Part shown: positions 7,711 to 58,663 of the stretch, piece by piece | Position numbering within the stretch: position 1 is the first letter of the stretch | Layout of the letters: each line of letters opens with the position of its first letter | Assembly (NCBI GenBank): GCA_027692465.1 | Contig: JAQEYU010000006.1 | Span: forward strand, 1-64,000 | Direction of reading: 5' to 3' | DNA length: 64,000 nt | DNA from: Enterococcaceae bacterium OF42-14pH9A | GTDB lineage: Bacteria; Bacillota; Bacilli; Lactobacillales; Enterococcaceae | Program-made: the position numbers and the translations under genes | The notes under the pieces: model-generated | The model's input: the letters and a program-made list of their open reading frames with translations, nothing else | What the model was told of the DNA's origin: nothing | The model's database searches: none

Positions 7711-7746
7711 TTGGAGTGAAAGAGAATAATTTAGGAGGTGAACCTG

Positions 7747-10558: not shown

Positions 10559-11563
10559 TTACTCCTTTCTTTCAAAGCTACTTAGATCTAGTTTTCTAGA
10601 ATATTCAGTTAGCTTATTACCATTCAGATATTTAGGGGTATATAGATAATCCTCTGGGATATCTCCGAAATGTTCGAATAGCTTAATTCGTTCCTCAATT
10701 TCACAGAAAATATCAGCAAAGAGTGCAAATATTTTACGATCATGATAATCAGTGACCAGAAACCCAGTATCTGGATATTCTTCAAGGCGAGTTGAGTTTG
10801 TAACAATTGCATTAAATGTGAAGTTTGGGCCAAAGGTATCCTTTGTATCCCGAATAATTTTTTCATGAAGTGAACGTTTCGGTTGTAAAAGAAATGGAAG
10901 CAGGCCAAGAACCTCACCTTTAAACTTATCTCCAAAATCGTCAATAAGTGTCTGTAAATATACGTTAATAATATCGATTGAGCCCTCAAAAGAATATGTT
11001 TTAGTTTCTTGAGTGATAATGAAGTAGTCGGCACATACCATGGCATTATCAACTTTGATATCAGTGCTTGGCCCAACATCAATCCAAATATAGTCATATC
11101 GATCTTTGATTGTTTCAAGCAGTTTTGAGAAGTGGAAAGTTCTCAATGTTTTAGTCTCCCAATACTCTTTAGAAGTTTTATCTTTGTTTGTGTGTGGATA
11201 GGTAAATTCAAGAAATTCTTCAAGCTCGACAATATCACTCCCACCAGCAATCATATGAAGATTAGGTGTCAGTTCTACAATCCCAGATTCTAAGTCATTA
11301 TCTTGAATACATTGAAATACTGTCTTAGGAAAATCAACATCGAATGTTTTCCCTAGAAGACTTGTAGCATTGGCTTGCTTATCCCAATCTATGAAACACC
11401 CTTTCCGATCAAACTCAGGGTTTGGTAGTGTCGCCACCGCACTCTCACCAGTGGAAGAAGTTGTCTTACCTACTCCGCCCTTTTGGTTTGCATTTATTAG
11501 CACTCGGCAGCGTTTTTCCAAAAACTTGTTGAGAATATCACTGTATCGGCTGTAGGAATTCAT
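10559..11563 (-). CDS. parA: ParA-family partition ATPase
   Basis: A 334-residue ParA/RepB-type ATPase. The deviant Walker A motif NQKGGVGKTT lies at about residues 26-35, the Walker A' block is CFIDWDKQANAT, and Walker B is YIWIDVGPSTD. It has a longer N-terminus and C-terminal region than minimal ParA, like PrgP/RepB proteins of enterococcal plasmids. ParA hydrolyses ATP on the nucleoid to move plasmid copies apart. With the downstream DUF5388 gene and flanking repeats it forms a complete partition locus. Confidence 0.88.
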   Translation of the reverse strand: MNSYSRYSDILNKFLEKRCRVLINANQKGGVGKTTSSTGESAVATLPNPEFDRKGCFIDWDKQANATSLLGKTFDVDFPKTVFQCIQDNDLESGIVELTPNLHMIAGGSDIVELEEFLEFTYPHTNKDKTSKEYWETKTLRTFHFSKLLETIKDRYDYIWIDVGPSTDIKVDNAMVCADYFIITQETKTYSFEGSIDIINVYLQTLIDDFGDKFKGEVLGLLPFLLQPKRSLHEKIIRDTKDTFGPNFTFNAIVTNSTRLEEYPDTGFLVTDYHDRKIFALFADIFCEIEERIKLFEHFGDIPEDYLYTPKYLNGNKLTEYSRKLDLSSFERKE

Positions 11564-28169: not shown

Positions 28170-28264
28170 TCGTTTTTTGTGGTGATTGTTAGAATTCCGA
28201 AAATCAGAGTGGCAATCAATGAGCCGAAACTGATCATCAAACCTAACGCTGCTTCCACAGACAA
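28157..28264 (-). CDS. Fst/holin-like type I toxin peptide 1 (35 aa)
   Basis: On the minus strand, AAAGGAG lies 8 bp before a TTG start (complement of 28262-28264). The peptide is MSVEAALGLMISFGSLIATL followed by IFGILTITTKNDKKK: one membrane helix with a polar basic tail, as in putative holin-like toxins of the Fst/TxpA superfamily. A longer upstream ATG in frame precedes the ribosome site and belongs to the leader. Such peptides insert in the membrane and kill plasmid-free segregants. Confidence 0.8.
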   Translation of the reverse strand: MSVEAALGLMISFGSLIATLIFGILTITTKNDKKK

Positions 28265-28378
28265 AAGGGCGTCTCCTTTCTTGGATTTTGGAAGTACGTT
28301 CATACGCACCACCTCACTTTCGAAGGATAGCCACCGTCTTTTCAACTTTACTACCGAAATTAGTATATCATATGTCAG

Positions 28379-42799: not shown

Positions 42800-42901
42800 T
42801 TCCCTTATGCTCTTTCCAATTTTCCCCTTTCTCGTCGCTCCGCGCCGTTCAAGGGGAGTTGGAAACCCACTCCCTTCTTCGAAAGGAGGTCCCCCCTACC
42901 C

Positions 42902-43210: not shown

Positions 43211-43667
43211 AAAAACACATCCGACACGAATAAATGTCGATGTATCTGAGAGTACAAAATCTTTTATTCTGGCATATAAGGATAAGCATCGCTGTGTGAC
43301 GCAAGCCGAGGCAATTGATCAGATTGTCAAAGAATTGGAAGATCAAGACACAAAGGAACTTGTCGCAGATCAAATCGCACAGGCAACCGCGAACTATGTC
43401 ATTGAGGGCTTGAAACGGCAATACCTGGATCCCTTGCGGATCCGGACAGGGTATGCGGATAAACAAACGAAAGTGCTAATCCAAATGATGAACCACTTAA
43501 TGGTGAAAGGTGATTTTGATGATCCAAATATTATTACCACTGATGTTCACTCTTCGACAGCACTAAAGGTGTCAGAAGAAAAGATTCAAAAGGAAATCGA
43601 ACACTTCAAGCAAAGAAAGAACACCCGTGAGGCGACTCGTGAGGGCCGTCAGGAGACGAGTGATTAA
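43203..43667 (+). CDS. Second relaxosome accessory protein (154 aa)
   Basis: A soluble protein beginning MSRKTHPTRINVDVSESTKS, a likely DNA-binding beta strand with following helices (QAEAIDQIVKELEDQDTKEL), and ending in a charged helix (RKNTREATREGRQETSD). The stop codon touches the relaxase start, so both are coupled. Proteins in this position assist MobP-type relaxases. Confidence 0.65.
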   Translation: MSRKTHPTRINVDVSESTKSFILAYKDKHRCVTQAEAIDQIVKELEDQDTKELVADQIAQATANYVIEGLKRQYLDPLRIRTGYADKQTKVLIQMMNHLMVKGDFDDPNIITTDVHSSTALKVSEEKIQKEIEHFKQRKNTREATREGRQETSD

Positions 43668-44899
43668 TGGTGATTCAAGCAGGGGTTGTCATGAAGACAA
43701 AATTTATTGGAGCAGGCGACAAGCGCTTTGGCAAGGCCATTGATTACCTGGATAAAGAGAAGTCTAAACGTCAAAATAATCTCAATCAGTACTATGCCTT
43801 TGACGACTACTCTCACTCGCCGGACAAGTTGAAAAATATTACTGCTCTTTTCAACGGCCGACAGGATTACCTGGATGAAAGTGCCAAACTTGAACTAAAG
43901 AAGGACTTCACTGAAGCTCGTGAAAACGGCAGCCCAATGTGGCAGACCGTGTTCAGTTTTGACAACGATTATCTGAAAGAGCTGGGTCTCTTTCGGGTCG
44001 GAGATCATGACTTTTTAGATGAAGGAGCCTTGAAGCAGGCAACAACGTTGGCAATGAATAAGGTGATTAATGATTTGAATCTTGGGGCAACCGCCAGATG
44101 GACGGCTGCCATTCACTATGATACGGATAACATTCACGTCCACACGATGCTAGTGACAACAGATCCCGAGGCGACGTTGGAAAAAATGATTTATAAGGAG
44201 AAGGAAGTTTACCGAGGAAAGATTCCACCAAAGACCACGCGGGCAATGAAATCAAAGTTTGCGAATGCGATTGCTGATCGGGATCCAACGTTGGCCAGAA
44301 TCTCTTATCTCATGCGGGAGCAAGTGGTGAAGCAATCAATGAGTGTCGGTTTTTCGAAAGATATCCAGATCATGAGGAGTATCACGCAGCTTGTCAATCA
44401 GCTGCCGAAGGATCGCCGTCTTTGGAAATACGGAAACAATGCAATGGCACAATTTCGACCACAGATTGATGGGCTGGCTCGGGCGATTATCGCGAGAAAT
44501 AATCCGAAGGCGATGGAGGAGCTGGAACAGCTTCTGGATGAACAGGATCGTTTCTTCAAGCTAACCTATGGTACTGGTGCTGGTGGTGCGCCGCTCTCTT
44601 ACAAAGAAAATCAGCTAAAACAAGTCAACAAGGATATGGGAAATGCACTTTTGAAAGAGTTGGTTCGCAGCATGTCTCGAGAGGAATGGCTTGCACAAAA
44701 TCGCTACACTCCAGAACAAATTCAGGCCTATCTCGAAGAAAAAAAGGAGCCGATGGTCACAAAGAAAACCCTCAACCGAATCACAGAGGCGGTGGAAGGC
44801 AGCCGACAAGAGTATTTGAGTAAGCGTGCCTACTACCAGGAACAATACCGGAAAGACATGCAACGAAAACATGAATTAGAACAGGGGAGAGGCTACTAA
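43667..44899 (+). CDS. MobP-type relaxase (MobL-like)
   Basis: A 410-residue relaxase. The N-terminal block (GVVMKTKFIGAGDKRFGKAI, then DYLDKEKSKRQ) matches MobL/MobP2 proteins, and the metal-binding motif HYDTDNIHVH is at about residues 150-159. The relaxase cuts one strand at oriT and stays bound to the 5' end. ATG 43667 is kept because relatives have several residues before the KTKF strand. The C-terminal half is helical and may contact the coupling protein. A terminator-like hairpin overlaps its stop codon. Confidence 0.88.
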   Translation: MVIQAGVVMKTKFIGAGDKRFGKAIDYLDKEKSKRQNNLNQYYAFDDYSHSPDKLKNITALFNGRQDYLDESAKLELKKDFTEARENGSPMWQTVFSFDNDYLKELGLFRVGDHDFLDEGALKQATTLAMNKVINDLNLGATARWTAAIHYDTDNIHVHTMLVTTDPEATLEKMIYKEKEVYRGKIPPKTTRAMKSKFANAIADRDPTLARISYLMREQVVKQSMSVGFSKDIQIMRSITQLVNQLPKDRRLWKYGNNAMAQFRPQIDGLARAIIARNNPKAMEELEQLLDEQDRFFKLTYGTGAGGAPLSYKENQLKQVNKDMGNALLKELVRSMSREEWLAQNRYTPEQIQAYLEEKKEPMVTKKTLNRITEAVEGSRQEYLSKRAYYQEQYRKDMQRKHELEQGRGY

Positions 44900-44937: not shown

Positions 44938-47115
44938 ATGGCACAATCAGCGCAAAAGACACGGAAGCGTGTGTATACGAAAGAAGAAATCCAGCGGGCG
45001 AATCAAGTGGATATGGTGGACTTTATCCAGTCTCACGGTCAAGGCACCCTTGAAGGGCATGGCCGTTACTTTAAGTATCATGTGAACGGTCATGATTCAC
45101 TGGTCATTGACAAAAAGCTGAACTATTTCTATCACAATGGCCAACAACGCGGGGATAACCTTGTCGCTCTTTTGAGAGAGTATGAGGGGTATTCCTTTCC
45201 TGATGCTGTCGGTTTTTTGTTGGGGGAAGACCTGGAGCCGCATAAAGAATTTGTCGAAGAGCCCATCGGGCCCTACCAGCAAGTGTATGAACAGGATACG
45301 ACTTATGATCAAGCACAGAACTATTTACGCAAGGTACGGGGAATTGATAAAGATATTGTCGATTTTCTCTTTACGAATGGCTATGTCATTCAGGATAAAA
45401 AATACAAAAGTGCTGTTTTTCAATGGCGAGAGTTCGGTTTGCCACAAGGTGAAATCGTAGGCGCGACGTCTCAAGGAACAACTGTTGACTACAATCAGTA
45501 TGGGAAGCGCGGAACCGCCAAATATATTGCAAAAAATTCAAAACGGCATTATGGATTTTCAATCACGCTGGGTAAACCAAAGCAGTATCTTTTCTTTGAA
45601 TCAACGATTGATTTGCTCTCTTACTGGTCGTTGCATAAGGAGTTGGACAATAGTCGGTTGATGAGCCTGGAAGGGTTGAAGCATCAATCAATCCTAAACT
45701 TTATTCAAGAAACCAATGGGTACTTTGATCAGCTACCAACTGAAGGTATCGTCTACGGCGTGGACAACGATGCAGCTGGTCACCGGTTGTTTGATTTTGT
45801 CGAGGAACGGATCAATATCATTGGCAGTCGAGAGTCAGACAAACCAGCAGAAAATATCAATCAGATTCCCTTTGATCATGAAATCCCGAACCAAATGATT
45901 CAACTTTATCAAGAGGCCGCAGAGGACTTTCCCAACGTCAATTGGGTAACGTTGGCCACTGTTCATAAGATTGAGACCAATTATTCCAATACAAATAAGA
46001 TTGCCAATAACTTCAACTTACACCGCTACTTTGCCCAGGACGCTACGAGTAAGCTACCTAATGAAGAAATCGATGTGGCGCTTGCCGTTCAATCCGCGGC
46101 AGAGGAACTACATGCCGTTTTATTGGACGCACCAGATCCGAATGACCCGGTAGAACAGCTGGTGAGTCTCTACGTTGATCAAGATGAATCTGAGAGTAAA
46201 CGGCAGCTGATTAAAGAGAAGATTCAGTATTACTATGACGATTACTATGCAGGAAACTACCAACGTGTGGAAGAAATTTCGAAGGATTGGAATGAGCTGT
46301 TGTTACAACAACGTTCAGAAGGAATGGTAACAGAACGTGAACCACTTGCCTTTGATCCAAAACGTGATGGGTTGGACGACTACCTGACAGAAACATTCGA
46401 TTACTACCTGCAAGATTCTCCGACACAAGAAGCTGTCCGTGGTATGCTGGTTGGGAAATATGGCATTAACGTCAATGTCGTCAATGCCTTAATCAAAAAG
46501 GGCCTGATTCGGCAGGACGTCAATGATCGGATTGTTTTTCTTTGGAACAATGAGGGCGAAGTCATTGGGGGACAAATTCGTGGGACGTTCTACAATAAGG
46601 CAGCCTTCAAGAAAACAGCTGGGTATGAGAAGAAGGTCATGGATAAATCAGAAGAAGGCTACGGCTTCAATGTGACACTAGGCCGGCCGGATAAGATGCA
46701 CCTTTTCCAAACCCCTGAAGACCTGTTGGCATTTTGGACGATGCACATTGATGATCTGAAAGACACGGTACTATTTTCCCTGTCGAACAATAATCCAGAC
46801 GACGTGATCAAAAATATTAATCTCAAAATGAAGGCAGGATATAAGATTAAGCAGGTGGAGTTTTGCATGGGAAACAACCAGGAATCACTTGATCTTATGG
46901 ACAAGGTGGCTCAGCTCGAAAGCTTTGATCGGCAGACTGGGCAGCTAACCACTATCCAGGGAGATAAAATCCAATTTCGCTCTCTGCGGCCGAGAATCGG
47001 GATTGATTGGTTGAGTGAACTTGATGAAAAGCGCGCACGGATGGCAGCCTTAGATCGAGCGAACGGGCGTGCCGGACAGCAGTTGAATCAAGTTGTGTCC
47101 TATAGTCGAACGTAA
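44938..47115 (+). CDS. Conjugative primase-like protein with duplicated DUF3991/Toprim region
   Basis: A 725-residue protein related to LtrC-type plasmid primases. A CHC2/zinc-finger-like N-terminal module (ANQVDMVDFIQSHGQGTLEG, then YFYHNGQQRGDNLVALLREY) precedes a DUF3991 block (AQNYLRKVRGIDKDIVDFLF). A Toprim segment follows (LFFESTIDLLSYWSL…YGVDNDAAG). From about residue 480 the DUF3991 pattern recurs (EAVRGMLVGKYGINVNVVNA, then HLFQTPEDLLAFWTMHIDDL), but the Toprim acidic motif is less clear, suggesting a degenerate second copy. It would prime synthesis on the transferred strand. Confidence 0.78.
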   Translation: MAQSAQKTRKRVYTKEEIQRANQVDMVDFIQSHGQGTLEGHGRYFKYHVNGHDSLVIDKKLNYFYHNGQQRGDNLVALLREYEGYSFPDAVGFLLGEDLEPHKEFVEEPIGPYQQVYEQDTTYDQAQNYLRKVRGIDKDIVDFLFTNGYVIQDKKYKSAVFQWREFGLPQGEIVGATSQGTTVDYNQYGKRGTAKYIAKNSKRHYGFSITLGKPKQYLFFESTIDLLSYWSLHKELDNSRLMSLEGLKHQSILNFIQETNGYFDQLPTEGIVYGVDNDAAGHRLFDFVEERINIIGSRESDKPAENINQIPFDHEIPNQMIQLYQEAAEDFPNVNWVTLATVHKIETNYSNTNKIANNFNLHRYFAQDATSKLPNEEIDVALAVQSAAEELHAVLLDAPDPNDPVEQLVSLYVDQDESESKRQLIKEKIQYYYDDYYAGNYQRVEEISKDWNELLLQQRSEGMVTEREPLAFDPKRDGLDDYLTETFDYYLQDSPTQEAVRGMLVGKYGINVNVVNALIKKGLIRQDVNDRIVFLWNNEGEVIGGQIRGTFYNKAAFKKTAGYEKKVMDKSEEGYGFNVTLGRPDKMHLFQTPEDLLAFWTMHIDDLKDTVLFSLSNNNPDDVIKNINLKMKAGYKIKQVEFCMGNNQESLDLMDKVAQLESFDRQTGQLTTIQGDKIQFRSLRPRIGIDWLSELDEKRARMAALDRANGRAGQQLNQVVSYSRT

Positions 47116-47126
47116 GGAGGAAAAAC

Positions 47127-47576
47127 ATGAATAATGTGTGTCAAAGTGGACGTGTAACCCGAGATCCGCAACTGCGTAAAACCAACTCTGGAACTACGGT
47201 TGTTGCCTTTAATCTAGCGGTCAATCGAGACCGAATCGGTAAAGATGGTAAGAAGATGGTAGATTTTATCCCTTGCGTCATTTGGCGTAAGGGAGCAGAA
47301 AATTTTGTTAAGTACGTGAAAAAAGGAACCCTGGTGGAAATTACCGGGTTCAACTCCACACGCACTTATCAAAAGGGCGACACAAAGGTGTTTGTGATGG
47401 AAGTTACCGCATTGACTTTTCGGGTTCTGGAAAGTCGCTCGGCTATCGAACATCGGCAGCAAGCAGCGGACCATACGGCACCTGCTTCAGAAGAATTTCC
47501 GGAAGATGGGTCCTACGATCCGTATGATTCTGGACATACGTGGGTCGATATTTCAGACGACGATATGCCGTTTTGA
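47127..47576 (+). CDS. ssb: Single-stranded DNA-binding protein
   Basis: A 149-residue SSB: an OB-fold (NNVCQSGRVTRDPQLRKTNS, then FIPCVIWRKGAENFVKYVKK), an acidic linker and the conserved C-terminal tip DDDMPF that recruits partner proteins. It closes the transfer operon and would coat plasmid single strands in donor or recipient. Confidence 0.93.
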   Translation: MNNVCQSGRVTRDPQLRKTNSGTTVVAFNLAVNRDRIGKDGKKMVDFIPCVIWRKGAENFVKYVKKGTLVEITGFNSTRTYQKGDTKVFVMEVTALTFRVLESRSAIEHRQQAADHTAPASEEFPEDGSYDPYDSGHTWVDISDDDMPF

Positions 47577-47765: not shown

Positions 47766-47858
47766 GTCATTTTTTAGCACGGACACAACCAAACCAATTA
47801 ATGCAATGGTAAACATACCAAAGGCAAAAATCGTCTGAATTGTTTCATATGCAGACAA
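47754..47858 (-). CDS. Fst/holin-like type I toxin peptide 2 (34 aa)
   Basis: On the minus strand GAAAGGAG lies 8 bp before a TTG start (complement of 47856-47858). The peptide is MSAYETIQTIFAFGMFTIAL followed by IGLVVSVLKNDKKK: one membrane helix with a KNDKKK tail, clearly related to the 28157 toxin. Its leader (GGTGGCTATC, GTGAGGTGGTGCGTA) is nearly identical to that of locus 1. Two different members on one element may reflect separate acquisition. Confidence 0.8.
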   Translation of the reverse strand: MSAYETIQTIFAFGMFTIALIGLVVSVLKNDKKK

Positions 47859-48069
47859 AAGGCTTCTCCTTTCAAAGATTTTGGAAGTACGCACATACGC
47901 ACCACCTCACTTTCCAAGATAGCCACCACCATAAACTTTCTACTTTGCCAGTATAGCATGAAACATGCAGCGAACGTCCCAAAAAACAGGGATTCTCTGC
48001 GTGTTTTTTTGTCTTTTCTCAAAGCAACGGATGGAGAATTTCTTCAGGAAATGGTATGATGGTCTTGGG

Positions 48070-48696
48070 GTGAGTGATGTGTTAAACGAGAAAACTAGAC
48101 TTGTATTTGAACTGTATAGTGGGACTTTGCCAGTGAAGGTTGCAGCAGAACACGGGATTAGCAATGGGACACTACAAAAAGCCTACCGACGTGGTGAAAT
48201 AGAGAAACCATATCGTGGTGTCTATGTTCTTCCTGAGAGCTTAGATGATGATCTATTGGCCATGCAATCGATTTACTCAAAAGGTATTTATTCTTATGAA
48301 ACAGCTCTTTATCTGAATGGTTTAGGCAGCTTCGTACCCTTCAAATACTATATGACTTTTCCTCGTGGATACAGTAACTCCTCGTTCGAGGAAAATATGA
48401 TTTCACCAAGTTGGATTACTGAAAAATATTATGAGATTGGCCTAACTGAATTGCTGTCTTTGGTTGGAAATCCCTTACGTGTGTACGACAAAGAACGAAC
48501 AATCCTGGATATTCTAGGCTCAAAAAGAATCCTGCCCTATTTAGTTGAAGAGGCAGTTTATGATTACTACACGGATAGTGATGCGGATTTTGATCGCTTA
48601 GTTCATTATGCGGAACAAATGAAGCGTACCTATTTGCTGAAAAGGTGGAATGAGTATCTTGTTAAGTTTAGCAAAAATGAAAAATCTAGTTCGTGA
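48070..48696 (+). CDS. abiEi: AbiEi-type antitoxin/regulator
   Basis: About 208 residues from GTG 48070; GTG 48079 is an alternative with better spacing from GGGGTGAG. A winged helix-turn-helix N-terminus (KVAAEHGISNGTLQKAYRRG, then EIEKPYRGVYVLPES) precedes the AbiEi C-terminal domain (KGIYSYETALYLNGL…). AbiEi represses the operon and counteracts AbiEii. It overlaps the toxin gene by 47 bp. Confidence 0.82.
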   Translation: MSDVLNEKTRLVFELYSGTLPVKVAAEHGISNGTLQKAYRRGEIEKPYRGVYVLPESLDDDLLAMQSIYSKGIYSYETALYLNGLGSFVPFKYYMTFPRGYSNSSFEENMISPSWITEKYYEIGLTELLSLVGNPLRVYDKERTILDILGSKRILPYLVEEAVYDYYTDSDADFDRLVHYAEQMKRTYLLKRWNEYLVKFSKNEKSSS

Positions 48697-49597
48697 AAAA
48701 TCAAAGGAATTCCATGTCCCGCCGCAACAATTGTATTCGCTGTATGGGCTGGAGGAATTATTAAAACGCTTATCTGACTCTCCGTACAAAGAGTATTTAG
48801 TGATTAAGGGTGGGTATTTACTGACATCAGTCTTTGGCCTGGATAATCGGACAACAAAAGATTTAGATGCTTCAGTAAAGGATCTTAGTTTGGATAGAGA
48901 AACGATTGAGGCGATTGGGGCATATCTCGAAAGCCCTTATCCTGATGGAAAAGTTCATTTCAAAGTAACTACAATTAAAGATTCAAGGGAAAACTTCGAA
49001 TACAGTGGGTTTAATATGCGACTGCATTTTATCAACGAGTCTGCCGTCATTCCGTTAGATCTTGATATTACTACTGGCGAAAAAATTCTTCCTACGCCAG
49101 AAACAAAAATCCCACTGATTTTTTCGGAAGGGGAGATTTCGTTCCAGGCATACCCTGCCGAGCAAATTCTATCTGATAAACTTTATACAACCCTAGCCTA
49201 TGGGGCAATTGACGATACGAATTCGCGAGCCAAGGATTTGTACGATCTGTACTATTTGAGTACCTTTCATGAACAAATCGATTACGCGGCGGTAAAACAG
49301 TCCATTGAGGCAACGAAGAAACAAAGAGGGGATCAAATTGAACCTTCAGACTATATGCAAATTCTAGATCAGTTAGAGTCGTCACCCAGACAGCAAGCTT
49401 ATTGGGAGAAGTATCAACTTGATCATGCGTATGCAATTGGTGTCCCTTTTGCAAAAGGCTTTGAAGCTGCAAGAAGTGTTATCAAGCAAGCCTATCCAGA
49501 GTTAGAAAAAGGAGCAAAAAGGTCTAATGAGTTGGAGTCAGGACCGTCGCATTCGGTACACAGAAGGATTGAGCCTGAACGTGGCCGCAGCAGATAG
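48650..49597 (+). CDS. abiEii: AbiEii-type nucleotidyltransferase toxin
   Basis: About 315 residues with the DNA polymerase beta-like nucleotidyltransferase fold: KEYLVIKGGYLLTSVFGLDN, then RTTKDLDASVKDLSLDRE with the catalytic Asp pair. The YPAEQILSDKLYTTL and NSRAKDLYDLYYLSTF blocks are typical of AbiEii. The toxin transfers nucleotides to tRNA and stops growth after phage infection. ATG 48650 is preceded by AAAGGTGG at short spacing; ATG 48677 is possible. AbiE systems also stabilise plasmids. Confidence 0.85.
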   Translation: MSILLSLAKMKNLVREKSKEFHVPPQQLYSLYGLEELLKRLSDSPYKEYLVIKGGYLLTSVFGLDNRTTKDLDASVKDLSLDRETIEAIGAYLESPYPDGKVHFKVTTIKDSRENFEYSGFNMRLHFINESAVIPLDLDITTGEKILPTPETKIPLIFSEGEISFQAYPAEQILSDKLYTTLAYGAIDDTNSRAKDLYDLYYLSTFHEQIDYAAVKQSIEATKKQRGDQIEPSDYMQILDQLESSPRQQAYWEKYQLDHAYAIGVPFAKGFEAARSVIKQAYPELEKGAKRSNELESGPSHSVHRRIEPERGRSR

Positions 49598-51257: not shown

Positions 51258-51722
51258 TTAAGACTTTCTTCTGAAATCACTCAAAACATCACGCTTCTTT
51301 TCGGAAAGAAAAGTTTCAAATTCAATAATTTCTTCTCTCTTCTTTTTAAGCACGGAGTCACGCATGGATTTTGGAAAGACGCCTTCTCGTTCCAGGATAA
51401 GGTTCTCTAATACATAGATTTTCTTCACCAGATGGGCAGTTCTTTCATCATCGTGTGCTCGAAATGCTTGGTCCTTTGCAGTCCGAGCAATCTTTAGCAG
51501 ATAGTATAATGTGAGTGTTTTCTCCTGAAGGAGATCGTGAGTGTTGCGAGTTAGGATCTCATTCTCATCTTCCAGCATAGGGATTTCGTCAGGGATTTGC
51601 GACTGTCGTTCTTGATTTTTGCAGACTTCATCAAGCGAAAAGCCGAGTTGGCAGAATTCGCAGAACAGCGTATCTGTTAAGTGAGTACCACAATATTTAC
51701 AAGTGTATGTTTCTGTGTTCAT
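51258..51722 (-). CDS. Zinc-ribbon protein, paralogue of the 60327 product
   Basis: A 154-residue protein with an N-terminal double CxxC (TCKYCGTHLTDTLFCEFCQL) and a helical remainder (TLTLYYLLKIARTAKDQAFR, then KKIYVLENLILEREGVFPKS). The helical part aligns with the protein at 60327 (QMTYVELLSRLKLARGVYRE; KLVIENIMIEKHGYYPAS). It is the last gene of the leftward array. Such small zinc-ribbon proteins are common on enterococcal plasmids; function unknown. Confidence 0.65.
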   Translation of the reverse strand: MNTETYTCKYCGTHLTDTLFCEFCQLGFSLDEVCKNQERQSQIPDEIPMLEDENEILTRNTHDLLQEKTLTLYYLLKIARTAKDQAFRAHDDERTAHLVKKIYVLENLILEREGVFPKSMRDSVLKKKREEIIEFETFLSEKKRDVLSDFRRKS

Positions 51723-51797
51723 GGGAATTCCTCCAAGTAAGTTTTTTGGCTAGTGAAGCGTCCAGAAATCAATCATTAGTAAGAGTATAGCCTAAGT

Positions 51798-52457
51798 CTA
51801 TTGGGCTTGAAAGGGGCTACAGTTATGAAGTACGAAAAAGGGTGTTAACCAGGTGGAGTAGACGTCCTGTGATAATGAATTTTTGACCTGGCAAACTGCC
51901 TGGATCCCTAGTAATGACAATTGAATATAGGCCATCATTAGACAGTGACGATCTAAGTCTTCACAGTGCACCTTCAGCTCGGTCTGATAATTGTGGCCAT
52001 TCTTTTCCATTGCTGAAGCCAAGCCAATGACCAGGCTGCCGGATCCGCAACAAGGTTCGAAGTAATGAATGCAGCCATCTGAAGAAAAGGCGGTGTCATG
52101 GTTAGATAAAGTTAATTCTGCCATTAAGCGAGCTACATGAGAAGGAGTAAAACACTGGCCGGTCGTTCGATTGGCAATACCTAAATCCATGTAGATTTCA
52201 CCTAACCAGTCCCGCTTTTCCGACTCCAGGGCAAGAATGAGAGCGGCAAATGATTCAGAAAAGCAGGAAAGCTGCTCTTTGGAGTATTTGCGAACAATCG
52301 TGAGATAGGCATTTTCTCTTTCAGAAAAGTCCGTCTTGTCTGAGGCGTTGGCGATAGCATATGCCATTAGTTCGACCCAATCGAAAAAGATAGTAGATAG
52401 CCCGTAGGATCCAGTGTTTGACCGAAGGTTTGTAAGAATAGTTTTTTTGATGTCCAT
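51798..52457 (-). CDS. N6-adenine DNA methyltransferase-like protein (219 aa)
   Basis: The SAM-binding core of an N-6 DNA methylase is clear: TGQCFTPSHVARLMAELTLS, the FEPCCGSGSL motif I and CEDLDRHCLMMAYIQLSLLG. The catalytic (N/D)PP(Y/F) motif expected after the following strand is not visible, and the protein ends with VYSTWLTPFFVLHNCSPFQA. Short plasmid methylases of this type are widespread, and whether they methylate is uncertain. Start ATG 52457 follows GAAGGAGGTC, immediately downstream (minus strand) of structured element copy 1. Confidence 0.72.
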   Translation of the reverse strand: MDIKKTILTNLRSNTGSYGLSTIFFDWVELMAYAIANASDKTDFSERENAYLTIVRKYSKEQLSCFSESFAALILALESEKRDWLGEIYMDLGIANRTTGQCFTPSHVARLMAELTLSNHDTAFSSDGCIHYFEPCCGSGSLVIGLASAMEKNGHNYQTELKVHCEDLDRHCLMMAYIQLSLLGIQAVCQVKNSLSQDVYSTWLTPFFVLHNCSPFQAQ

Positions 52458-52462
52458 GAAAT

Positions 52463-53018
52463 GACCTCCTTCAGAAAGGTTTTTGCCTTTCCTTGATTTG
52501 ATTTATTTTTCTTTGACGTAGAAGATGCACTCCTACCTGAAATGACCGACAAGGGCTTACAGCTGCACCAGCTTCAGCTGGATGCAGGTGTTGTGCATTT
52601 ACCCTTGTCGGTTGAATGGAAGGTAGGATAAAAGGCGACAGCGGAGCCGTTCTTCTCAAAGAAAAATGAAATCAAGGAAAGGCGGAGGCCTGAAGGGCCG
52701 GGGTGCGACGGAGGAGCACCACAGGGAGGCGAAGCCGACAGCCCGTTGTAAACGGGCGGGAAGTGGGCGTAGGCCACGCAGGGGGACCCGGTGATCATTG
52801 ATCAACGGGGGAAAAGCAGGCAGCGCCTGCGTTCCCTTTGATAGAGTCGTCTGAGGATCAGACGACTGAATTTGTCAATAGAGCGAAGCGTCAAGGGGAA
52901 AGCACGAAGTCGAAGACGGTACGAGTGCTTGGACCGACTATTGACAAATTCACAGCAATACGTGCAGCGAATTGCATCCGTAAGGTCAAAGAAATAGGTG
53001 ATTCCTATTTCTTTGACC
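52463..53018 (-). repeat. Structured cassette element, copy 1
   Basis: From the gene side this copy has AAGGAGGTC, then long arms (TTTTTCTTTGA and complement) enclosing CCTACCT/AGGTAGG, CCGACAAGGG/CCCTTGTCGG and CCAGC-TTCA-GCTGG. A GC-rich block of hairpins follows (GGTGC/GCACC, GCCCGT/ACGGGC, GCAGGC/GCCTGC), then GTCGTCTG/CAGACGAC and GAATTTGTCAATAG with its complement enclosing AAGCAC/GTGCTT. The gene-distal end is a separate 15-bp hairpin, 52984-52998 with 53004-53018. It lies upstream of the methylase gene. Near-identical structure recurs four more times. Confidence 0.85.
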
Positions 53019-53025
53019 GCTGCTT

Positions 53026-53121
53026 TTATGCGATTCGAACCAACCCTCCAAAATTGGCCTCACGTTGCACCAATTTCAAAGATTCGTTTTTTCTGAAGTA
53101 AAGGCAACACGCTACCAGCAT
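53026..53121 (-). pseudogene. Remnant tail of a gene like 55100
   Basis: On the minus strand the frame ends NFGGLVRIA-stop, matching the end FGGLVRTA-stop of the 55100 gene next to copy 3. Upstream of this tail similarity is lost and there is no ribosome site. It shows that the DNA repeated with the element includes the end of a neighbouring gene. Confidence 0.5.
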
Positions 53122-53168
53122 GAAAGTATAGGAGCAGTCCCCTACACCTTCACGAGCGACTTTATGGA

Positions 53169-53360
53169 TCACAATTCGTATTCGCCTCGGAGTTTATGTG
53201 CACAATCTTCACAGACGTATCCTACCCCCCAGGCACCGTTAGGCATGGAAGTCAGCTCAATCCCGCACTCTTCACAGGTTCCGAATCCCGAACCGTCGCC
53301 TTCGTCTAGGAACTCTTCATCAATTTTTTGCCACTTGCTTTCTTGTTCACACATTTTCAT
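53169..53360 (-). CDS. Small zinc-ribbon-like protein (63 aa)
   Basis: ATG (complement of 53358-53360) follows GGAAGGAAATGGTG. The acidic product has two CxxC pairs (FGTCEECGIELTSM and YVCEDCAHKLRGEYEL), so it probably binds zinc. It lies between element copies 1 and 2. Copy 2 has its own degenerate ribosome site (GAAGGAAGTCC) some 45 bp further upstream without a start codon. Confidence 0.6.
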   Translation of the reverse strand: MKMCEQESKWQKIDEEFLDEGDGSGFGTCEECGIELTSMPNGAWGVGYVCEDCAHKLRGEYEL

Positions 53361-53411
53361 CACCATTTCCTTCCGAGTAATTGTTTTTATCCGTATTTCT
53401 TAGTTTGGCAG

Positions 53412-53967
53412 AGGGACTTCCTTCAGAAAGGCTTTTGGCCTTCCTTGATTTGATTTATTTTTCTTTGATGCAGAAGATGAATCATACCTGAAATGACCGA
53501 CAAGGGCTTACAGCTGCACCAGCTTCAGCTGGATGCAGGTGTTGTGTATTTACCCTTGTCGGTTGAATGGAAGGTATGATACAAGGCGACAGCGGAGCCG
53601 CTCTTCTCAAAGAAAAATAAAATCAAGGAAGGCGGAGGCCTGAAGGGCCGGGGTGCGACGGAGGAGCACCACAGGGAGGCGGAGCCGACAGCCCGTTGTA
53701 AACGGGCGGGAAGTGGGCGCAGCCCACGCAGGGGGACCCGGTGATCATTGATCAACGGGGGAAAAGCAGGCAGCGCCTGCGTTCCCTTTGATAAAGTCGT
53801 CTGAGAATCAGACGACTGAATTTGTCAATAGAGCGGAGCGTCAAGGGGAAAGCACGAAGTCGAAGACGGTACGAGTGCTTGGATCGACTATTGACAAATT
53901 CATGGCAAAGCGAGTAGCGCTTTGCTTCTTTGGTGTTGCTTAAGCCTCCATATCCTGGAGGCTTAAG
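53412..53967 (-). repeat. Structured cassette element, copy 2
   Basis: Same order of stems as copy 1, with CATACCT/AGGTATG instead of CCTACCT/AGGTAGG (paired change) and GCAAA/TTTGC instead of GCAAT/ATTGC near 53905 (paired change). The gene-distal hairpin is different: CTTAAGCCTCC (53939-53949) with GGAGGCTTAAG (53957-53967). It precedes the 53169 gene. Confidence 0.85.
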
Positions 53968-53980
53968 TAATTTGTCATAC

Positions 53981-54529
53981 CTAGTAGTAGAGACTGCATG
54001 CTTCATCAAAGGCATAAGGAGCGACTTCTTGTGCTTTGATGGCTTTTAGATTGGCACGAATTCGTGATTTTGAGACTAGCGCTTTCGTGGCTTCAAAGAA
54101 CGTGGCAAACGTCGGTTGATCCCCCATCATCATGTCAAAACGATTGACACAAAAGGCAAAAAAGAGGAATTGGTAGCTTACATCGCATTCATCAAGTGGC
54201 ATAGGCGTCAGCCAAAAATCATTCCCTTGTTGTTGGTTCTTCTGGAGGAGATAGTCTAACCAGTGAAGCTCAGTCGGAAAGTCCTTGTCTGCTTGCTGAA
54301 GTTCCTTGACCACCATTTCAAAATCCGGAAAATCCTCTGCCCCAAAACATAGAGGGTTGTGTGTCAGGATAAAGCCATTTTCCTGAAAGAATTCCCAAAC
54401 GTCTGACCCACTTTCAAAATTGTGATAGATAAGAGGTACGTCCAGATAGCGGTTGATTGATAGTCGGTCAAGGTAGTGATTTGCTGTGGCTAGGTCTTCT
54501 AATAATCCTTGTGTTTCATCATCTCTCAT
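53981..54529 (-). CDS. Hypothetical protein (182 aa)
   Basis: ATG 54529 follows AAAGGAGGTC. Acidic soluble protein (MRDDETQGLLEDLATANHYL, then VWEFFQENGFILTHNPLCFG), aromatic-rich, with no signal or membrane segment and no recognised family. It lies between element copies 2 and 3. Confidence 0.65.
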   Translation of the reverse strand: MRDDETQGLLEDLATANHYLDRLSINRYLDVPLIYHNFESGSDVWEFFQENGFILTHNPLCFGAEDFPDFEMVVKELQQADKDFPTELHWLDYLLQKNQQQGNDFWLTPMPLDECDVSYQFLFFAFCVNRFDMMMGDQPTFATFFEATKALVSKSRIRANLKAIKAQEVAPYAFDEACSLYY

Positions 54530-54536
54530 GTGAGGT

Positions 54537-55092
54537 GACCTCCTTTAGAAAGGCTTTTGGCCTTCCTTGATTTGATTTTTTTCCTTTGATGCAGAAGATG
54601 AATCATACCTGTAATGACCGACAAGGGCTTACAGCTGCACCAGCTTCAGCTGGATGCAGGTGTTGTGTATTTACCCTTGTCGGTTGAATGGAGGGTATGA
54701 TACAAGGCGACAGCGGAGCCGTTCTTCTCAAAGAAAAATAAAATCAAGGGAAGGCGGAGGCCTGAAGGGCCGGGGTGCGACGTAGGAGCACCACAGGGAG
54801 GCGAAGCCGACAGCCCGTTGTAAAAACGGGCGGGAAGTGGGCGTAGCCCACGCAGGGGGACCCGGTGATCATTGATCAACGGGGGAAAAGCAGGCAGCGC
54901 CTGCGTTCCCTTTGATAGAGTCGTCTGAGGAGCAGACGACTGAATTTGTCAATAGAGCGAAGCGTCAAGGGGAAAGCGCGAAGTCGAAGACGGTACGAGC
55001 GCTTGGATCGACTATTGACAAATTCACTGCAATACGCGCAGCGAATTGCATCCGAAAGGGCAGAGAAATAGGAAATACCTATTTCTCTGCCC
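54537..55092 (-). repeat. Structured cassette element, copy 3
   Basis: The stem near 54975 reads AAGCGC/GCGCTT where copies 1, 2 and 4 have AAGCAC/GTGCTT, a paired change. A 2-nt insertion lies in the loop after GCCCGTTGTAA. The gene-distal hairpin is GGGCAGAGAAATAGG (55058-55072) with its complement (55078-55092), matching that of copy 1 except for compensated pairs. It precedes the 53981 gene. Confidence 0.85.
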
Positions 55093-55099
55093 TTTGCTT

Positions 55100-55507
55100 T
55101 TACGCGGTTCGAACCAATCCTCCAAAAACTGGCTGAAAAGCGATTGTCCCAAACTCCGAAAACATTGGATTGTCTAAATTGAAGACATAGACAAATTGAT
55201 AGCCGTCTTTTAACTCTTGCCAATCATCTGACCAAGTGCTGGTATCCTCTGATACATAGAAAACGGATAACATTTGACCAATTGAGGTGTTGGATAAGAT
55301 AGCATAGTAAACGATACCTTGATAATCTTCCTCAAATTCGCTGACTAAGTGTTTCATTTTGTCAGTTAACCAGAAGTTCCCGCCGTTTCTTGAAAAGGAA
55401 ACGAGGTCAGATTGAGAAAATTGTGCAATGGTTTCATCAATAATAGCCATTGCCTTCATTCGTTTGATAGCCTCTTGTTTCATTTTTTCTTTTGATAATT
55501 CGTTCAT
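55100..55507 (-). CDS. SseB/DUF-like acidic hypothetical protein (135 aa)
   Basis: ATG 55507 follows AGGAGG and lies next to the stop of the 55509 gene. The product begins MNELSKEKMKQEAIKRMKAM and contains FWLTDKMKHLVSEFEEDYQG and YQFVYVFNLDNPMFSEFGTI; soluble, with a helical N-terminus and a beta-rich C-terminus. No firm family. Its last codons lie within the extended homology of element copies 1 and 3. Confidence 0.6.
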   Translation of the reverse strand: MNELSKEKMKQEAIKRMKAMAIIDETIAQFSQSDLVSFSRNGGNFWLTDKMKHLVSEFEEDYQGIVYYAILSNTSIGQMLSVFYVSEDTSTWSDDWQELKDGYQFVYVFNLDNPMFSEFGTIAFQPVFGGLVRTA

Positions 55508-55508
55508 A

Positions 55509-55952
55509 TTAGTTTTCCTCCTGATTGTCTGTACCCTGCTTAAAGGAATACACAGCGCCATTTGTTTTAATATCTTCAAAGTATTCAAGCCATTTGGAAT
55601 CAACCGTTTTCGCCCTTTTTTCCTCTGTAAAACGGAGCCATGTGAGTTCTAATGCTTGATATTCTGCCGGTTTAATTGCACTTGGTTTTACACCGGTATC
55701 AAGACAAAGTGTCGCTTGAAAGAGCCATTTGGGGTTGGATTTATACAACTGTTCAAGGGTTCGGTAGTAGGTGTCAATCAGGTTCAATTCAACACTACTT
55801 TCAATAAATTCTTCTTGCGCTTTTTCCAAAATCTGTTTGTAATGTTTTTTTGGTACACGAGTTTCGTTATAGGCAAACGTCATATTTTCTATTTGTTGTG
55901 CCATTTTTTCTCTAGGTAGTCTTACAAACTCGTCGTAGTAAAGCATTGGCAT
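55509..55952 (-). CDS. Hypothetical protein (147 aa)
   Basis: ATG 55952 is preceded by AAGGAGGTCCCCCTT at the end of element copy 4. The product (MPMLYYDEFVRLPREKMAQQ, then VPKKHYKQILEKAQEEFIES) is helical and charged. No family recognised. It is the first gene of a two-gene cassette with 55100. Confidence 0.6.
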   Translation of the reverse strand: MPMLYYDEFVRLPREKMAQQIENMTFAYNETRVPKKHYKQILEKAQEEFIESSVELNLIDTYYRTLEQLYKSNPKWLFQATLCLDTGVKPSAIKPAEYQALELTWLRFTEEKRAKTVDSKWLEYFEDIKTNGAVYSFKQGTDNQEEN

Positions 55953-55961
55953 AAGGGGGAC

Positions 55962-56513
55962 CTCCTTCAGAAAGGCTCTTGGCCTTCCTTGATTTGATTT
56001 ATTTTTCTTTGATGTAGAAGATGAATCATACCTGGAATGACCGACAAGGGCTTACAGCTGCACCAGCTTCAGCTGGATGCAGGTGTTGTGCATTTACCCT
56101 TGTCGGTTGAATGGAAGGTATGATAAAAGGCGACAGCGGAGCCGTTCTTCTCAAAGGAAAATAAAATCAAGGAAGGCGGAGGCCTGAAGGGCCGGGGTGC
56201 GACGGAGGAGCACCACAGGGAGGCGGAGCCGACAGCCCGTTGTAAGGGGGGGGGAAGGGGGCGTAGCCCACGCAGGGGGACCCGGTGATCGTTGATCAAC
56301 GGGGGAAAAGCAGGCAGCGCCTGCCTTCCCTTTGATAGAGTCGTCTGAGGAGCAGACGACTGAATTTGTCAATAGAGCGAAGCGTCAAGGGGAAAGCACG
56401 AAGTCGAAGACGATACGAGTGCTTGGACCGACTATTGACAAATTCATGGCAAAGCGAGCAGCGCTTTGCATCCGAGCTGGGACAAGGAGAATGATTTCAA
56501 TCTCCTTGTCCCA
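55962..56513 (-). repeat. Structured cassette element, copy 4
   Basis: Same stems as copy 2 (CATACCT/AGGTATG, GCAAA/TTTGC, AAGCAC/GTGCTT). The hairpin around 56240 is damaged (GTTGTAAGGGGGGGG instead of GTTGTAAACGGGCGG). The gene-distal hairpin is unique: TGGGACAAGGAGA (56478-56490) with TCTCCTTGTCCCA (56501-56513). It precedes the 55509/55100 pair. Confidence 0.85.
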
Positions 56514-56517
56514 ATTA

Positions 56518-56955
56518 TTAATCAATTACTAGCATTGCATCGAGTGCGTCTTCTTTGCCGTCTCGAAGCTTTCCTTCCTCATCGTAGAACTCCTCGTCAT
56601 CAAGGTGGATACACTTGTTTAGCACGATCTCTCCGTTTTCAATGACATAGTGTTCGTTAAACCCTAATCCTGTTTCAAGTGATTTAACCGTGATGGTTAA
56701 CATCAGCTCTTTTGATAGATATAGGAGATTCTGCGGGCTTTCTGGGTGGTCTTCAAGAAAACTGTATTCGACACTCCAGGCACAGAACCCTTCGATCCGC
56801 ATAATTTCCTCTTCAAGGGTAAATGCAAGGGCTTCATGTACCCCAAAAAAACGACCAAATAGATTAACGATTGAATCTCTTTCATACGCTGCTCTATCAA
56901 CGTTCAGACGTTGATAGAGCTGTTCCATTGATGAATGGGTGCCTTCAATAAGCAT
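56518..56955 (-). CDS. Hypothetical protein (145 aa)
   Basis: ATG 56955 lies 16 bp after the stop of the 56972 gene; the ribosome site is weak. An upstream extension of the frame overlaps that gene and is not credible. Product MLIEGTHSSMEQLYQRLNVD…, acidic, ending GKLRDGKEDALDAMLVID. No family recognised. Last gene of a three-gene cassette. Confidence 0.6.
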   Translation of the reverse strand: MLIEGTHSSMEQLYQRLNVDRAAYERDSIVNLFGRFFGVHEALAFTLEEEIMRIEGFCAWSVEYSFLEDHPESPQNLLYLSKELMLTITVKSLETGLGFNEHYVIENGEIVLNKCIHLDDEEFYDEEGKLRDGKEDALDAMLVID

Positions 56956-56971
56956 GTTGAAATCACAGTAA

Positions 56972-57466
56972 TTACTCAAAGAAATCACCAAAATTCTGAT
57001 AGTTTTCCTGCACCTGATTGTTGGAAATATGGATAGAGCCAAAGTCTTCGAAATCTTCACCACGGTAAACGACAAGTCCTTCGACGGTATAGTGGTTAGG
57101 CGCAAGAACCTTGTCAATCAGATATTGAATCCATTCAACGTAATTATAGAATTTTTCCTGTCCGTCCCATTCGATGGTCTGATTGTCTTCTTGCAGCTCC
57201 CACTGACACCAAAGACCTGGTTGTGTTGCTGGTGGTTGATTATAGTTCACGATAGATGCTGGATGGCTGTTTTGCCCATAGTTTCCATCATCTAAACAGA
57301 AAAACTCGCCGTCTTCACCACAATCACCGAAGCCTGCCTCGATGAGTAGTTGGTTGTTTCGTTTCATTCTTCTTGTCTGTTGCAGCCCTCGCAAAAGTGC
57401 GGCTACTTCTTCATTGACTGGCTCATTGATTGTGAATTCGCCCATAAAGTCGGTATGATAACCCAT
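56972..57466 (-). CDS. Phage/plasmid-type hypothetical protein (164 aa)
   Basis: ATG 57466 follows AAGGAGGAG. It begins MGYHTDFMGEFTINEPVNEE and contains FGDCGEDGEFFCLDDGNYGQ and GLWCQWELQEDNQTIEWDGQ; proteins with this MGYHTDF start are found in phages and mobile elements. Soluble and acidic. Function unknown. Confidence 0.65.
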   Translation of the reverse strand: MGYHTDFMGEFTINEPVNEEVAALLRGLQQTRRMKRNNQLLIEAGFGDCGEDGEFFCLDDGNYGQNSHPASIVNYNQPPATQPGLWCQWELQEDNQTIEWDGQEKFYNYVEWIQYLIDKVLAPNHYTVEGLVVYRGEDFEDFGSIHISNNQVQENYQNFGDFFE

Positions 57467-57479
57467 TATTTTCTCCTCC

Positions 57480-57851
57480 TTACCACCATTCGGTGTAACT
57501 GACTTGATACCCGTCGTTAAGTAACTTCTCTGCTCTTTCGATGATAGGTAACGTTTCTTCTAGCTCTTGATAGTACATTTCATCGTATACAATGGAACCG
57601 AAGAAAAAACCGCCTGCTGTTGGGAGCAAATTCTCTGAAGTTTCTGGGGAACGGTCAGCAAGGCATGTTAAAATCTTCGATTTCAAGTCTGCCAACATTT
57701 CTGAGTTAACCACTAGCTCTTCAATATTTTCGTTGCGTTTTTCTGGAATGTGGGAGGCGAAGAACCTACGAATTTGGTTTGCTTTTCGCCAATACCCAAC
57801 TTCTGGTTGATCCTCTTCTTTTTTTGCGACTAACCACATGTCTAAACCCAT
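57480..57851 (-). CDS. MGLDM-type hypothetical protein (123 aa)
   Basis: ATG 57851 follows ATGGAGGAATC. The product begins MGLDMWLVAKKEEDQPEVGY and WRKANQIRRFFASHIPEK, a start shared with many phage and plasmid proteins of unknown role. It is acidic and soluble and heads the three-gene cassette behind element copy 5. Confidence 0.65.
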   Translation of the reverse strand: MGLDMWLVAKKEEDQPEVGYWRKANQIRRFFASHIPEKRNENIEELVVNSEMLADLKSKILTCLADRSPETSENLLPTAGGFFFGSIVYDEMYYQELEETLPIIERAEKLLNDGYQVSYTEWW

Positions 57852-57889
57852 TGTTGATTCCTCCATTGGAATGTATTTCAAAGGAGAGG

Positions 57890-58435
57890 ATTCTCCTTTA
57901 GAAAGGCAGGAATGCCTTTTGAGAGAAGCGTTTTTCCTTTGATGTGTTGAGGCGATCACGGCAGAAAGGCAGACACAAGGACGTACACCGGCACCAACTT
58001 CAGTTGGATGTCCGGAGTCGTGCATTTATCCTTGTGTCTGCGTGGTGGCCGTGATAGAAGGCAACAGCGTTGCCGTATCAACCAAAGGAAAAACTATTCA
58101 AAAGGTAAGCTGCCAACCAAAAGGAGACGGGCGAGTTGGAAACGAGCGGAAGTGGGCGTAGCCCACGCAGGGGGACCCGGTGATCGTTGATCAACGGGGG
58201 AAAAGCAGGCGGCGCCTGCGTTCCCTTTGATAGAGCCGTCTGTGGAGCAGACGGCTGAATTTGTCAATAGAGCGAAGCGTTAAGAGGAAAGCGTGAAGTC
58301 GAAGACGGTACGAGCGCTTGAAACGTCTATTGATAAATTCATAGCAATACGCGCAGCGGATTGTACCCAATTCAGAACTGAAATGGAGGGGTATTTGGGG
58401 AGAGAGAGCTTCTAAAAGACGATATGGTTCTGAAT
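57890..58435 (-). repeat. Structured cassette element, copy 5 (most diverged)
   Basis: Many stems have the same place and length as in copies 1-4 but different paired bases: ATCACGGC/GCCGTGAT, GCAGACACAAGGA/TCCTTGTGTCTGC, CCAAC-TTCA-GTTGG and GCCGTCTG/CAGACGGC. The central GC-rich block is shorter. The gene-distal inverted repeat is ATTCAGAAC (58370-58378) with GTTCTGAAT (58427-58435), with a 48-nt loop. It precedes the 57480 gene. Confidence 0.8.
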
Positions 58436-58663
58436 ATGACTGATATTACATAAATGTAAGTGGTTTCAAAAATGTGGTGAGGGTATACTAAATCATAGAA
58501 AAACATTTCACAAAGATAGATAAATGTGTTTTCTGTTAGGTGTTTGCTCGGCATAGAGAGGGGGAAATAGCTTGAAAAAAATTGGGATATATTGAGTTGT
58601 ATCAGTTATCTGATGACATCCAAGAATCGCTTTGTAGATGGATTAGTTGAGAGGAGTAATTTT
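58436..58663. other. Intergenic region between the array and the amidase gene
   Basis: Non-coding and AT-rich. TGGTTT (58461-58466) and TATACT (58484-58489) with a 17-bp spacer could be the promoter of the rightward amidase gene. Nothing else was recognised. Confidence 0.35.

What the first reader, a model, noticed from the sequence alone, without database searches (positions are those of the whole stretch)
52463..58435. Five-copy, ~480-bp structured element separating minus-strand gene cassettes
Copies at 52463-53018, 53412-53967, 54537-55092, 55962-56513 and 57890-58435 each end at the ribosome site of a different minus-strand gene or gene group. They share an ordered series of about ten hairpins, are GC-rich against AT-rich surroundings, and do not code. 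I know of no named element with this form. Seen directly: repetition, order, position. Inferred: a common function for expression or movement of the cassettes.
Basis: partly seen in the sequence, partly recalled or inferred. Interest (0 to 1): 0.95.

Follow-up and report, generated by a model that had tools for sequence, protein, structure and literature searches.

The report
Entry-activated single-strand plasmid promoters
Five copies of a folded, non-coding DNA element sit in front of small gene groups on a conjugative element; they are predicted to fold on the single DNA strand that enters a new cell and would likely act as promoters that switch on the element's establishment genes before the second strand exists.

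Summary
The five-copy element is real. Its family occurs in enterococcal plasmids; look-alikes with the same stem and layout occur in Vagococcus, Staphylococcus and Bacillus. It resembles EGeRS1, described in 2021 on Bacillus plasmid pLS20 with mechanism unknown. Across 31 enterococcal copies, 43 of 98 base pairs change on both sides (shuffles 29.4). Leftover changes are G.T (20 columns) rather than A.C (3) on the strand that is template for the downstream genes; unpaired columns show no such bias. So the template strand folds, which argues against an mRNA leader. The window has a MobL relaxase and, upstream, the published oriT core CTTATGCTCTT. The folded strand is the core-bearing strand in 17 of 18 records that have both. 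A weak -35/extended -10 pair lies on the folded strand, its -10 at an unpaired junction. Best reading (0.55): single-strand promoters, working like Frpo/ssi, that express establishment genes on entry. Against it: the published pLS20 nick lies on the other strand; one record disagrees; in E. faecium the element would enter last; the -10 is imperfect. Nothing was tested at the bench.

The parts
52463..52975 (+). element copy 1 (folded strand +), before minus-strand genes 51798-52457 (N-6 methylase-like) and 51258-51722; candidate -35 at 52605-52610, -10 TAAAAG at 52629-52634
53412..53925 (+). element copy 2, before minus-strand gene 53169-53366; candidate -35 at 53556-53561, -10 TACAAG at 53580-53585
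54537..55049 (+). element copy 3, before minus-strand gene 53981-54529; candidate -35 at 54677-54682, -10 TACAAG at 54701-54706
55962..56469 (+). element copy 4, before minus-strand genes 55509-55952 and 55100-55507; candidate -35 at 56100-56105, -10 TAAAAG at 56124-56129
57890..58364 (+). element copy 5 (most diverged), before minus-strand genes 57480-57851, 56972-57466 and 56518-56955; candidate -35 at 58032-58037, -10 TAGAAG at 58055-58060
42804..42814 (+). oriT core CTTATGCTCTT, hairpins on its 5' side; predicted nick region
   Evidence: core defined in PMC4652767
43667..44899 (+). MobL / MobP2 relaxase
   Evidence: PF18555 E=2.2e-78, NF041498 E=4.2e-83
44938..47115 (+). DUF3991 / Toprim protein, primase-like
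47127..47576 (+). single-strand DNA-binding protein
   Evidence: PF00436 E=1.7e-23
51258..57851 (-). nine cassette genes: one N-6 methylase-like, eight of unknown family, all acidic

Best explanation
[quoted passage not shown] Shown by the calls: the conserved fold, which strand folds, the place before each cassette, and agreement with the strand of the oriT core in most records. Inferred: that the core strand is the strand that enters. Inferred: in the gene-proximal domain a three-way junction sets branch 1 (with a CAAGGG/CCCTTG stem) end to end with the AT-rich outer stem beside the ribosome site; TTGNNN in branch 1 acts as -35, TGN-TANAAG lies unpaired at the junction as a ready-melted -10, and a small extruded hairpin keeps the non-template side open. 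RNA polymerase would start there, copy the outer stem, the Shine-Dalgarno and the genes, and fall silent once the second strand is made and the hairpins are lost. The same RNA could prime second-strand synthesis. The products are probably establishment and anti-defence proteins.
For: Compensating changes. Wobble test on 31 enterococcal copies: G.T 42 cells in 20 columns against A.C 3 cells in 3 columns on the template strand; structure derived from the other strand gives 42 and 2; in unpaired columns the same two kinds of change are 59 and 70 columns; Fisher P=0.0002. The five window copies alone: 12 against 2 columns. Element strand equals oriT-core strand in 17 of 18 records, including E. 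faecium L024 where both are inverted relative to the relaxase gene. Mean -10 score over 11 representatives is positive only at spacers 13 and 16-19, highest at 16; 12 representatives score 4.06 against 2.26 for 2,051 TTG sites (P=0.00014, no TG bonus); the duplex form scores lower in 11 of 12. No consensus promoter on the minus strand of 52400-58500. EGeRS1-B has no promoter activity as duplex DNA (PMC8708921).
Against: The pLS20 nick was mapped to the non-template strand, and the EGeRS1 authors call an ssDNA promoter highly unlikely for that reason and for lack of a visible promoter. One record disagrees on strand (E. wangshanyuanii CP021876). In E. faecium L024 the core points away from the element, so it would enter last. 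The wobble test is not decisive for EGeRS1 (6 against 2 columns) and leans the other way, on few cells, for E. wangshanyuanii (1 against 3 columns). The -10 hexamers mostly end in G, not T, and would fail the rule used; the anchor and the TG bonus were chosen after looking; the three Bacillus representatives score no better than background (2.53). Native-orientation EGeRS1 blocks transcription coming from upstream. Four further MobL plasmids showed no such element in the 37-41 kb held.
Confidence: 0.55

Rival explanations
1. Duplex or RNA-level insulators: as shown for EGeRS1-B, the elements stop read-through into the establishment genes, and an unknown inducible duplex promoter expresses them.
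For: EGeRS1-B in native orientation blocked an upstream promoter and the authors could not exclude an inducible promoter.
Against: The wobble pattern says the template strand folds, whereas read-through RNA has the other sense; no consensus duplex promoter on the minus strand.
Confidence: 0.18
2. Single-strand initiation sites only: the folded strand recruits polymerase or primase to start the second strand, and the cassettes are expressed later from elsewhere.
For: The folded strand agrees with the oriT-core strand; Frpo itself also makes primer RNA (title of Masai and Arai 1997 seen in the reference list).
Against: One copy stands before nearly every cassette, ending at the ribosome site, which a replication site alone would not need.
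Confidence: 0.17
3. A structured RNA read from the + strand, antisense to the cassettes, is the working form.
For: A + strand RNA would satisfy the wobble test equally well.
Against: No Rfam family reaches its cut-off in the array; the Enterococcus-1 model is far below its cut-off (19.9 of 71.4 bits). Whether the + strand is transcribed there was not testable.
Confidence: 0.05
4. Copies of a small mobile element (MITE-like).
For: Several copies of one sequence on one molecule.
Against: Copies are 66-96% alike to a reference over 300 ungapped nt, in one orientation, before genes; no match among 50,697 phage records. Target duplications were not searched for.
Confidence: 0.02

Closest known systems
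EGeRS1 of the pLS20 plasmid family and pBS72 (Val-Calvo et al. 2021, PMC8708921)
   Same: Five copies, 420-750 bp, GC 51.4 against 37.7%, many inverted repeats, each just upstream of an RBS and operon; relaxase of the same family; a CAAGGG...CCCTTG stem and the decamer AGGGGGACCC on the same strand
   Different: Nucleotide profiles of the two families do not find each other; second half of the element is different; authors place the transferred strand the other way
Frpo / ssi single-strand promoters of F and ColIb-P9
   Same: Structured element in several copies, predicted to work on the entering strand, upstream of establishment genes (passages)
   Different: No sequence comparison with Frpo was run; here about 500 bp with a junction-based -10, in Bacillota, with a weaker -10
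Rfam RF02973 Enterococcus-1 RNA
   Same: Weak full-length alignment to copy 5 (58224-58351) with a hairpin-plus-long-stem layout
   Different: 19.9 bits against a cut-off of 71.4, E=1.4; no hit to this model in the relatives searched

Membership tests
EGeRS1 | 400-750 bp conserved sequence, several copies, each before an RBS and operon | tested here: met
   definition
EGeRS1 | GC well above the plasmid mean and multiple inverted repeats | tested here: met
EGeRS1 | More than 60% identity to pLS20 or p576 family sequences | tested here: not met
   profiles of the two families do not match each other; a pLS20 EGeRS1 query found Bacillus and one Paenalkalicoccus record only
EGeRS1 | No duplex promoter; blocks read-through | not testable with these tools
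   consensus scan finds no minus-strand promoter, which is no activity test
Frpo/ssi single-strand promoter | The transferred strand is the template of the downstream genes | tested here: inconclusive
   17 of 18 records by the oriT-core rule; contradicted by the pLS20 nick paper
Frpo/ssi single-strand promoter | -35 and -10 presented by the folded single strand | tested here: inconclusive
   -10 imperfect, Bacillus members weak
Frpo/ssi single-strand promoter | RNA synthesis from single-stranded DNA | not testable with these tools
   needs in vitro transcription
Rfam RF02973 Enterococcus-1 RNA | Score at or above the gathering cut-off | tested here: not met
   19.9 against 71.4 bits
MobL (MobP2) conjugative element | Relaxase profile above cut-off and oriT core upstream | tested here: met

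The most novel reading that the evidence does not exclude
MobL conjugative elements of Bacillota carry their own class of single-strand promoters: a three-way-junction fold of the transferred strand that offers a duplex -35 and a ready-melted -10 beside an extruded hairpin, one copy per establishment cassette. EGeRS1 belongs to it, and the published nick strand of pLS20 needs correction.
Probability: 0.45. Interest if true: 0.87.

Novelty: new variant of a known kind. Interest (0 to 1): 0.74.

Why it matters
How plasmids of Gram-positive bacteria express protective genes in the first minutes in a recipient is open: the EGeRS1 authors call the mechanism unknown, and the 2024 survey of leading regions omitted MOBP2 for lack of enrichment (passage; its MOBP2 class may not equal NCBI's MobP2). 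If the folded strand is the entering strand, the gap closes for a large plasmid group (1,017 of 72,556 plasmid records have a relaxase match), the elements become signposts to unknown anti-defence genes, such as the acidic proteins here, and one published nick assignment becomes directly testable.

Tried and rejected
Rfam: no family at its cut-off inside the array. Genome collection: two patterns, 0 hits each. Viral collection: 1 record. Phages: none. Strand energy as evidence: dropped for the window, since shuffles give most of the difference (z -1.3, -0.1, -0.3 for copies 1, 2, 5; -1.5 to -4.0 for seven relatives). The TTGACA in helix 10 as a -35: dropped, no -10 at a fitting distance (read by eye). 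A first guess of the nick at a TGCGCCCC motif: dropped for the published core. Wobble test outside the enterococcal set: not decisive. Rows dropped: truncated copy L001:13846-14402 left out of the 31; identical copies counted once. Four more MobL plasmids, 37-41 kb of each: stem scan 0, 0, 0 and 1 weak hit, so the element is not universal. Cassette searches: only the N-6 methylase domain passed a curated Pfam cut-off; nothing in NCBIfam or PDB, and PADLOC gave methylase models and two marginal hits (PDB for one protein). NCBIfam found no family for the Vagococcus gene annotated AcrIIA9 nor for pLS20 ArdC. Not used: structure prediction, protein-database search, covariance-model building.
Full report
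What is there. Five copies of a non-coding element lie at 52463-58435 in one orientation, each upstream of a minus-strand gene group. They are GC-rich (0.504-0.531 against 0.418 between them). Copies 1, 2 and 5 fold 12-16 sd better than dinucleotide shuffles.

Surroundings. The window carries a conjugation system: a VirD4-type coupling protein at 31462-34002, a DUF3991/Toprim protein at 44938-47115, SSB at 47127-47576 and an AbiEii toxin at 48650-49597 with a likely AbiEi below its cut-off, and a MobL/MobP2 relaxase at 43667-44899. The gap upstream of the relaxosome genes holds CTTATGCTCTT at 42804 on the + strand with hairpins on its 5' side. O'Brien et al. 2015 (PMC4652767; passages and two sections read) define this 11-mer as the oriT core of pWBG749 and four related plasmids and place the nick within 16 bp around it. 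The order is oriT core, relaxase, primase-like protein, SSB, AbiE pair, then the array on the opposite strand.

Relatives. With copy 3 as query, 11 of 72,556 plasmid records match, all Enterococcus. The annotated loci show mobP2, DUF3991 protein and ssb, followed by genes on the opposite strand separated by the element. In L001-L004 and L006, 16 of 16 intact copies start 6-79 bp from an annotated start codon; one truncated copy in L001 is not counted. A stem scan (CAAGG(G/A), then (C/T)CCTTG 26-130 nt on, at least 2 flanking pairs) finds 5 places in the window, 5 in pLS20, 2 in pWBG749, 2 in Vagococcus and 1 in E. faecium, and no others in those loci. Kinship differs in strength: E. faecium matches the enterococcal profile at E=2.3e-9, Vagococcus only at 0.053, pLS20 and pWBG749 not at all, so for these the case rests on stem and layout. 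In pWBG749 one of two copies precedes an annotated gene.

Covariation. On 31 distinct enterococcal copies (5 of the window, 26 from L001-L008; alignment A1) a structure predicted without G.T pairs has 98 pairs in 11 helices. Of 3,036 cells 98.1% pair; 43 pairs and 314 cells change on both sides; shuffles give 29.4 +/- 2.4 and 89.5 +/- 9.0; structures slid by 1-3 columns give 6-12 and 13-42. Further pair types (71) do not exceed shuffles (69.4).

Which strand folds. With a structure defined by Watson-Crick pairs alone, a single change leaves G.T or A.C, and G.T is tolerated on the strand that folds. On the + strand the leftovers are G.T 42 cells in 20 columns and A.C 3 cells in 3 columns, besides 55 other mismatches; a structure derived from the other strand gives 42 and 2. 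The five window copies alone give 12 against 2 columns. Unpaired columns show 59 and 70 columns for the same two kinds of change; Fisher P=0.0002. So the template strand of the cassettes folds, and a folding mRNA leader is disfavoured; a + strand RNA is not excluded. For EGeRS1 the first domain gives 6 against 2 columns (17 copies), the second domain none of either, and E. wangshanyuanii gives 1 against 3 (6 copies, some near-identical): nothing firm.

Folded strand and transferred strand. I compared the strand of the elements with the strand of the exact core in the records where I had both: window, eight enterococcal records (L001-L008), the IMG/VR record, E. wangshanyuanii CP021876, pLS20, pBS72, L019, L020, pWBG749, E. 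faecium L024, Vagococcus L025. 17 of 18 agree. For 16 the element's strand came from a profile or pattern; for pWBG749 and Vagococcus it was taken from the gene it precedes. In L024 core and element are both inverted relative to the relaxase gene. CP021876 disagrees; its array lies over 100 kb from the core, and the same region recurs in two other records of that assembly. Three records with elements have no exact core (L010, L021, L022); L011 was checked only over the 10,326 bases held. By my judgement these are about six lineages, so the agreement is suggestive, not proof. By the usual arrangement (hairpins 5' of the nick) the core strand is the transferred one. Then the array is on the entering side of oriT in the window, but in L024 it would enter last, which does not fit early expression.

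The conflict with print. Val-Calvo et al. 2021 (PMC8708921; abstract, Results parts 1 and 2 of 3, and section 4.1 read) find no promoter activity of EGeRS1-B as duplex, and a block of read-through in native orientation. They call an ssDNA promoter highly unlikely: the elements are long, no promoter was seen in the fold, and the nicked strand is non-template. The nick paper (PMC5313138, passages) infers the strand from a drop of sequencing signal after GAATCGGGGGCCGG, which starts at 27781 of pLS20; the core lies at 27744 on the + strand, where hairpins stand 5' of it. NCBI annotates the relaxases of pLS20 and pWBG749 as one family, MobP2. Which assignment holds is the pivot of the case.

Promoter in the fold. 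In every family looked at, the 3' arm of branch 1 reads (C/T)CCTTG and an AT-rich hexamer follows. Mean -10 score over 11 representatives is positive at spacer 13 (0.62) and at 16-19 (1.39, 0.15, 0.12, 0.17) and negative at all other spacers from 5 to 39. With spacers 14-19 allowed, 12 representatives score 4.06 against 2.26 for 2,051 TTG sites of the window (P=0.00014 without a TG bonus); nine non-Bacillus ones 4.57, three Bacillus ones 2.53. With the bonus, eight of the nine non-Bacillus representatives carry TG before the hexamer and none of the Bacillus ones; window copy 1 lacks it. The duplex form scores lower in 11 of 12. Limits: hexamers mostly end in G; anchor and bonus were chosen after looking; the candidate would itself fail the strict scan that finds no minus-strand promoter at 52400-58500 (3 sites, all +, against 6.6 in shuffles).

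What the cassettes make. One protein has an N-6 methylase domain (PF02384 E=1.9e-9); the other eight have no family above a curated cut-off. All nine are acidic (pI 4.2-5.7; five with net charge -10 or lower; start codons are my choice). Small acidic proteins are common among DNA mimics and anti-CRISPRs (recalled), which is only a hint. Relatives: a gene annotated as AcrIIA9 family lies behind a Vagococcus copy, though my NCBIfam scan of it found nothing; ArdC follows EGeRS1-B in pLS20; DNA methyltransferase genes stand in groups behind EGeRS1 copies in four Bacillus plasmids.

Place among known things. It would work like Frpo/ssi; membership is not shown. It looks like EGeRS1 but fails on sequence identity, so I call it EGeRS1-like. 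The term EGeRS1 occurs in one paper of the held library; a search for later work joining pLS20, leading regions and ssDNA promoters listed five papers, none with such a title or abstract start (listings only). The 2024 survey (PMC11541004, passages) omitted MOBP2 and found no Frpo-like sequence by similarity in its pneumococcal island.

Verdict. The element is a new variant of a known but unexplained kind, and the strand evidence revives a mechanism that was set aside.

Noticed in passing
window 5866-6972, 7738-9045, 7127-7202: The conjugative element carries a full-length RecA (TIGR02012 E=1.8e-155), a Y-family DNA polymerase and a tRNA-Met gene next to each other.
   Followed up: partly
window 47788-47965 and 28189-28377 (minus): Two Rfam rli28 matches (92.2 and 73 bits); one lies just behind ssb, as in L001 and L003, and nearby DNA matches plasmid genes annotated as type I toxin PepG1.
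   Followed up: no
window about 56244-56262: Copy 4 has a run of G where the other copies form helix 5; it is the one row of 31 that breaks several helix-5 pairs. A local mutation or a sequencing fault.
   Followed up: no
L013 27744-27795 (pLS20 oriT): The published pLS20 nick and the CTTATGCTCTT core of related plasmids lie about 40 nt apart on opposite strands.
   Followed up: partly
L027 31519-32269: In a Listeria MobL plasmid the AcrIIA4 gene (NF033946 E=2e-40) and its neighbour run opposite to the relaxase, as the cassettes here do, but no element was recognised.
   Followed up: partly
L009, L010, L011: Three records of one E. wangshanyuanii assembly share the same element-bearing genes beside a Tn3 transposase: spread within the strain, or an assembly artefact.
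   Followed up: no
L012 (IMG/VR record, 49 kb): A record filed as viral carries the element core pattern, a MobL relaxase and the oriT core, so it looks like a plasmid.
   Followed up: partly
window 10559-11563 (minus): ParA-like protein related to PrgP (NF041283 E=5.2e-98, below its cut-off).
   Followed up: no
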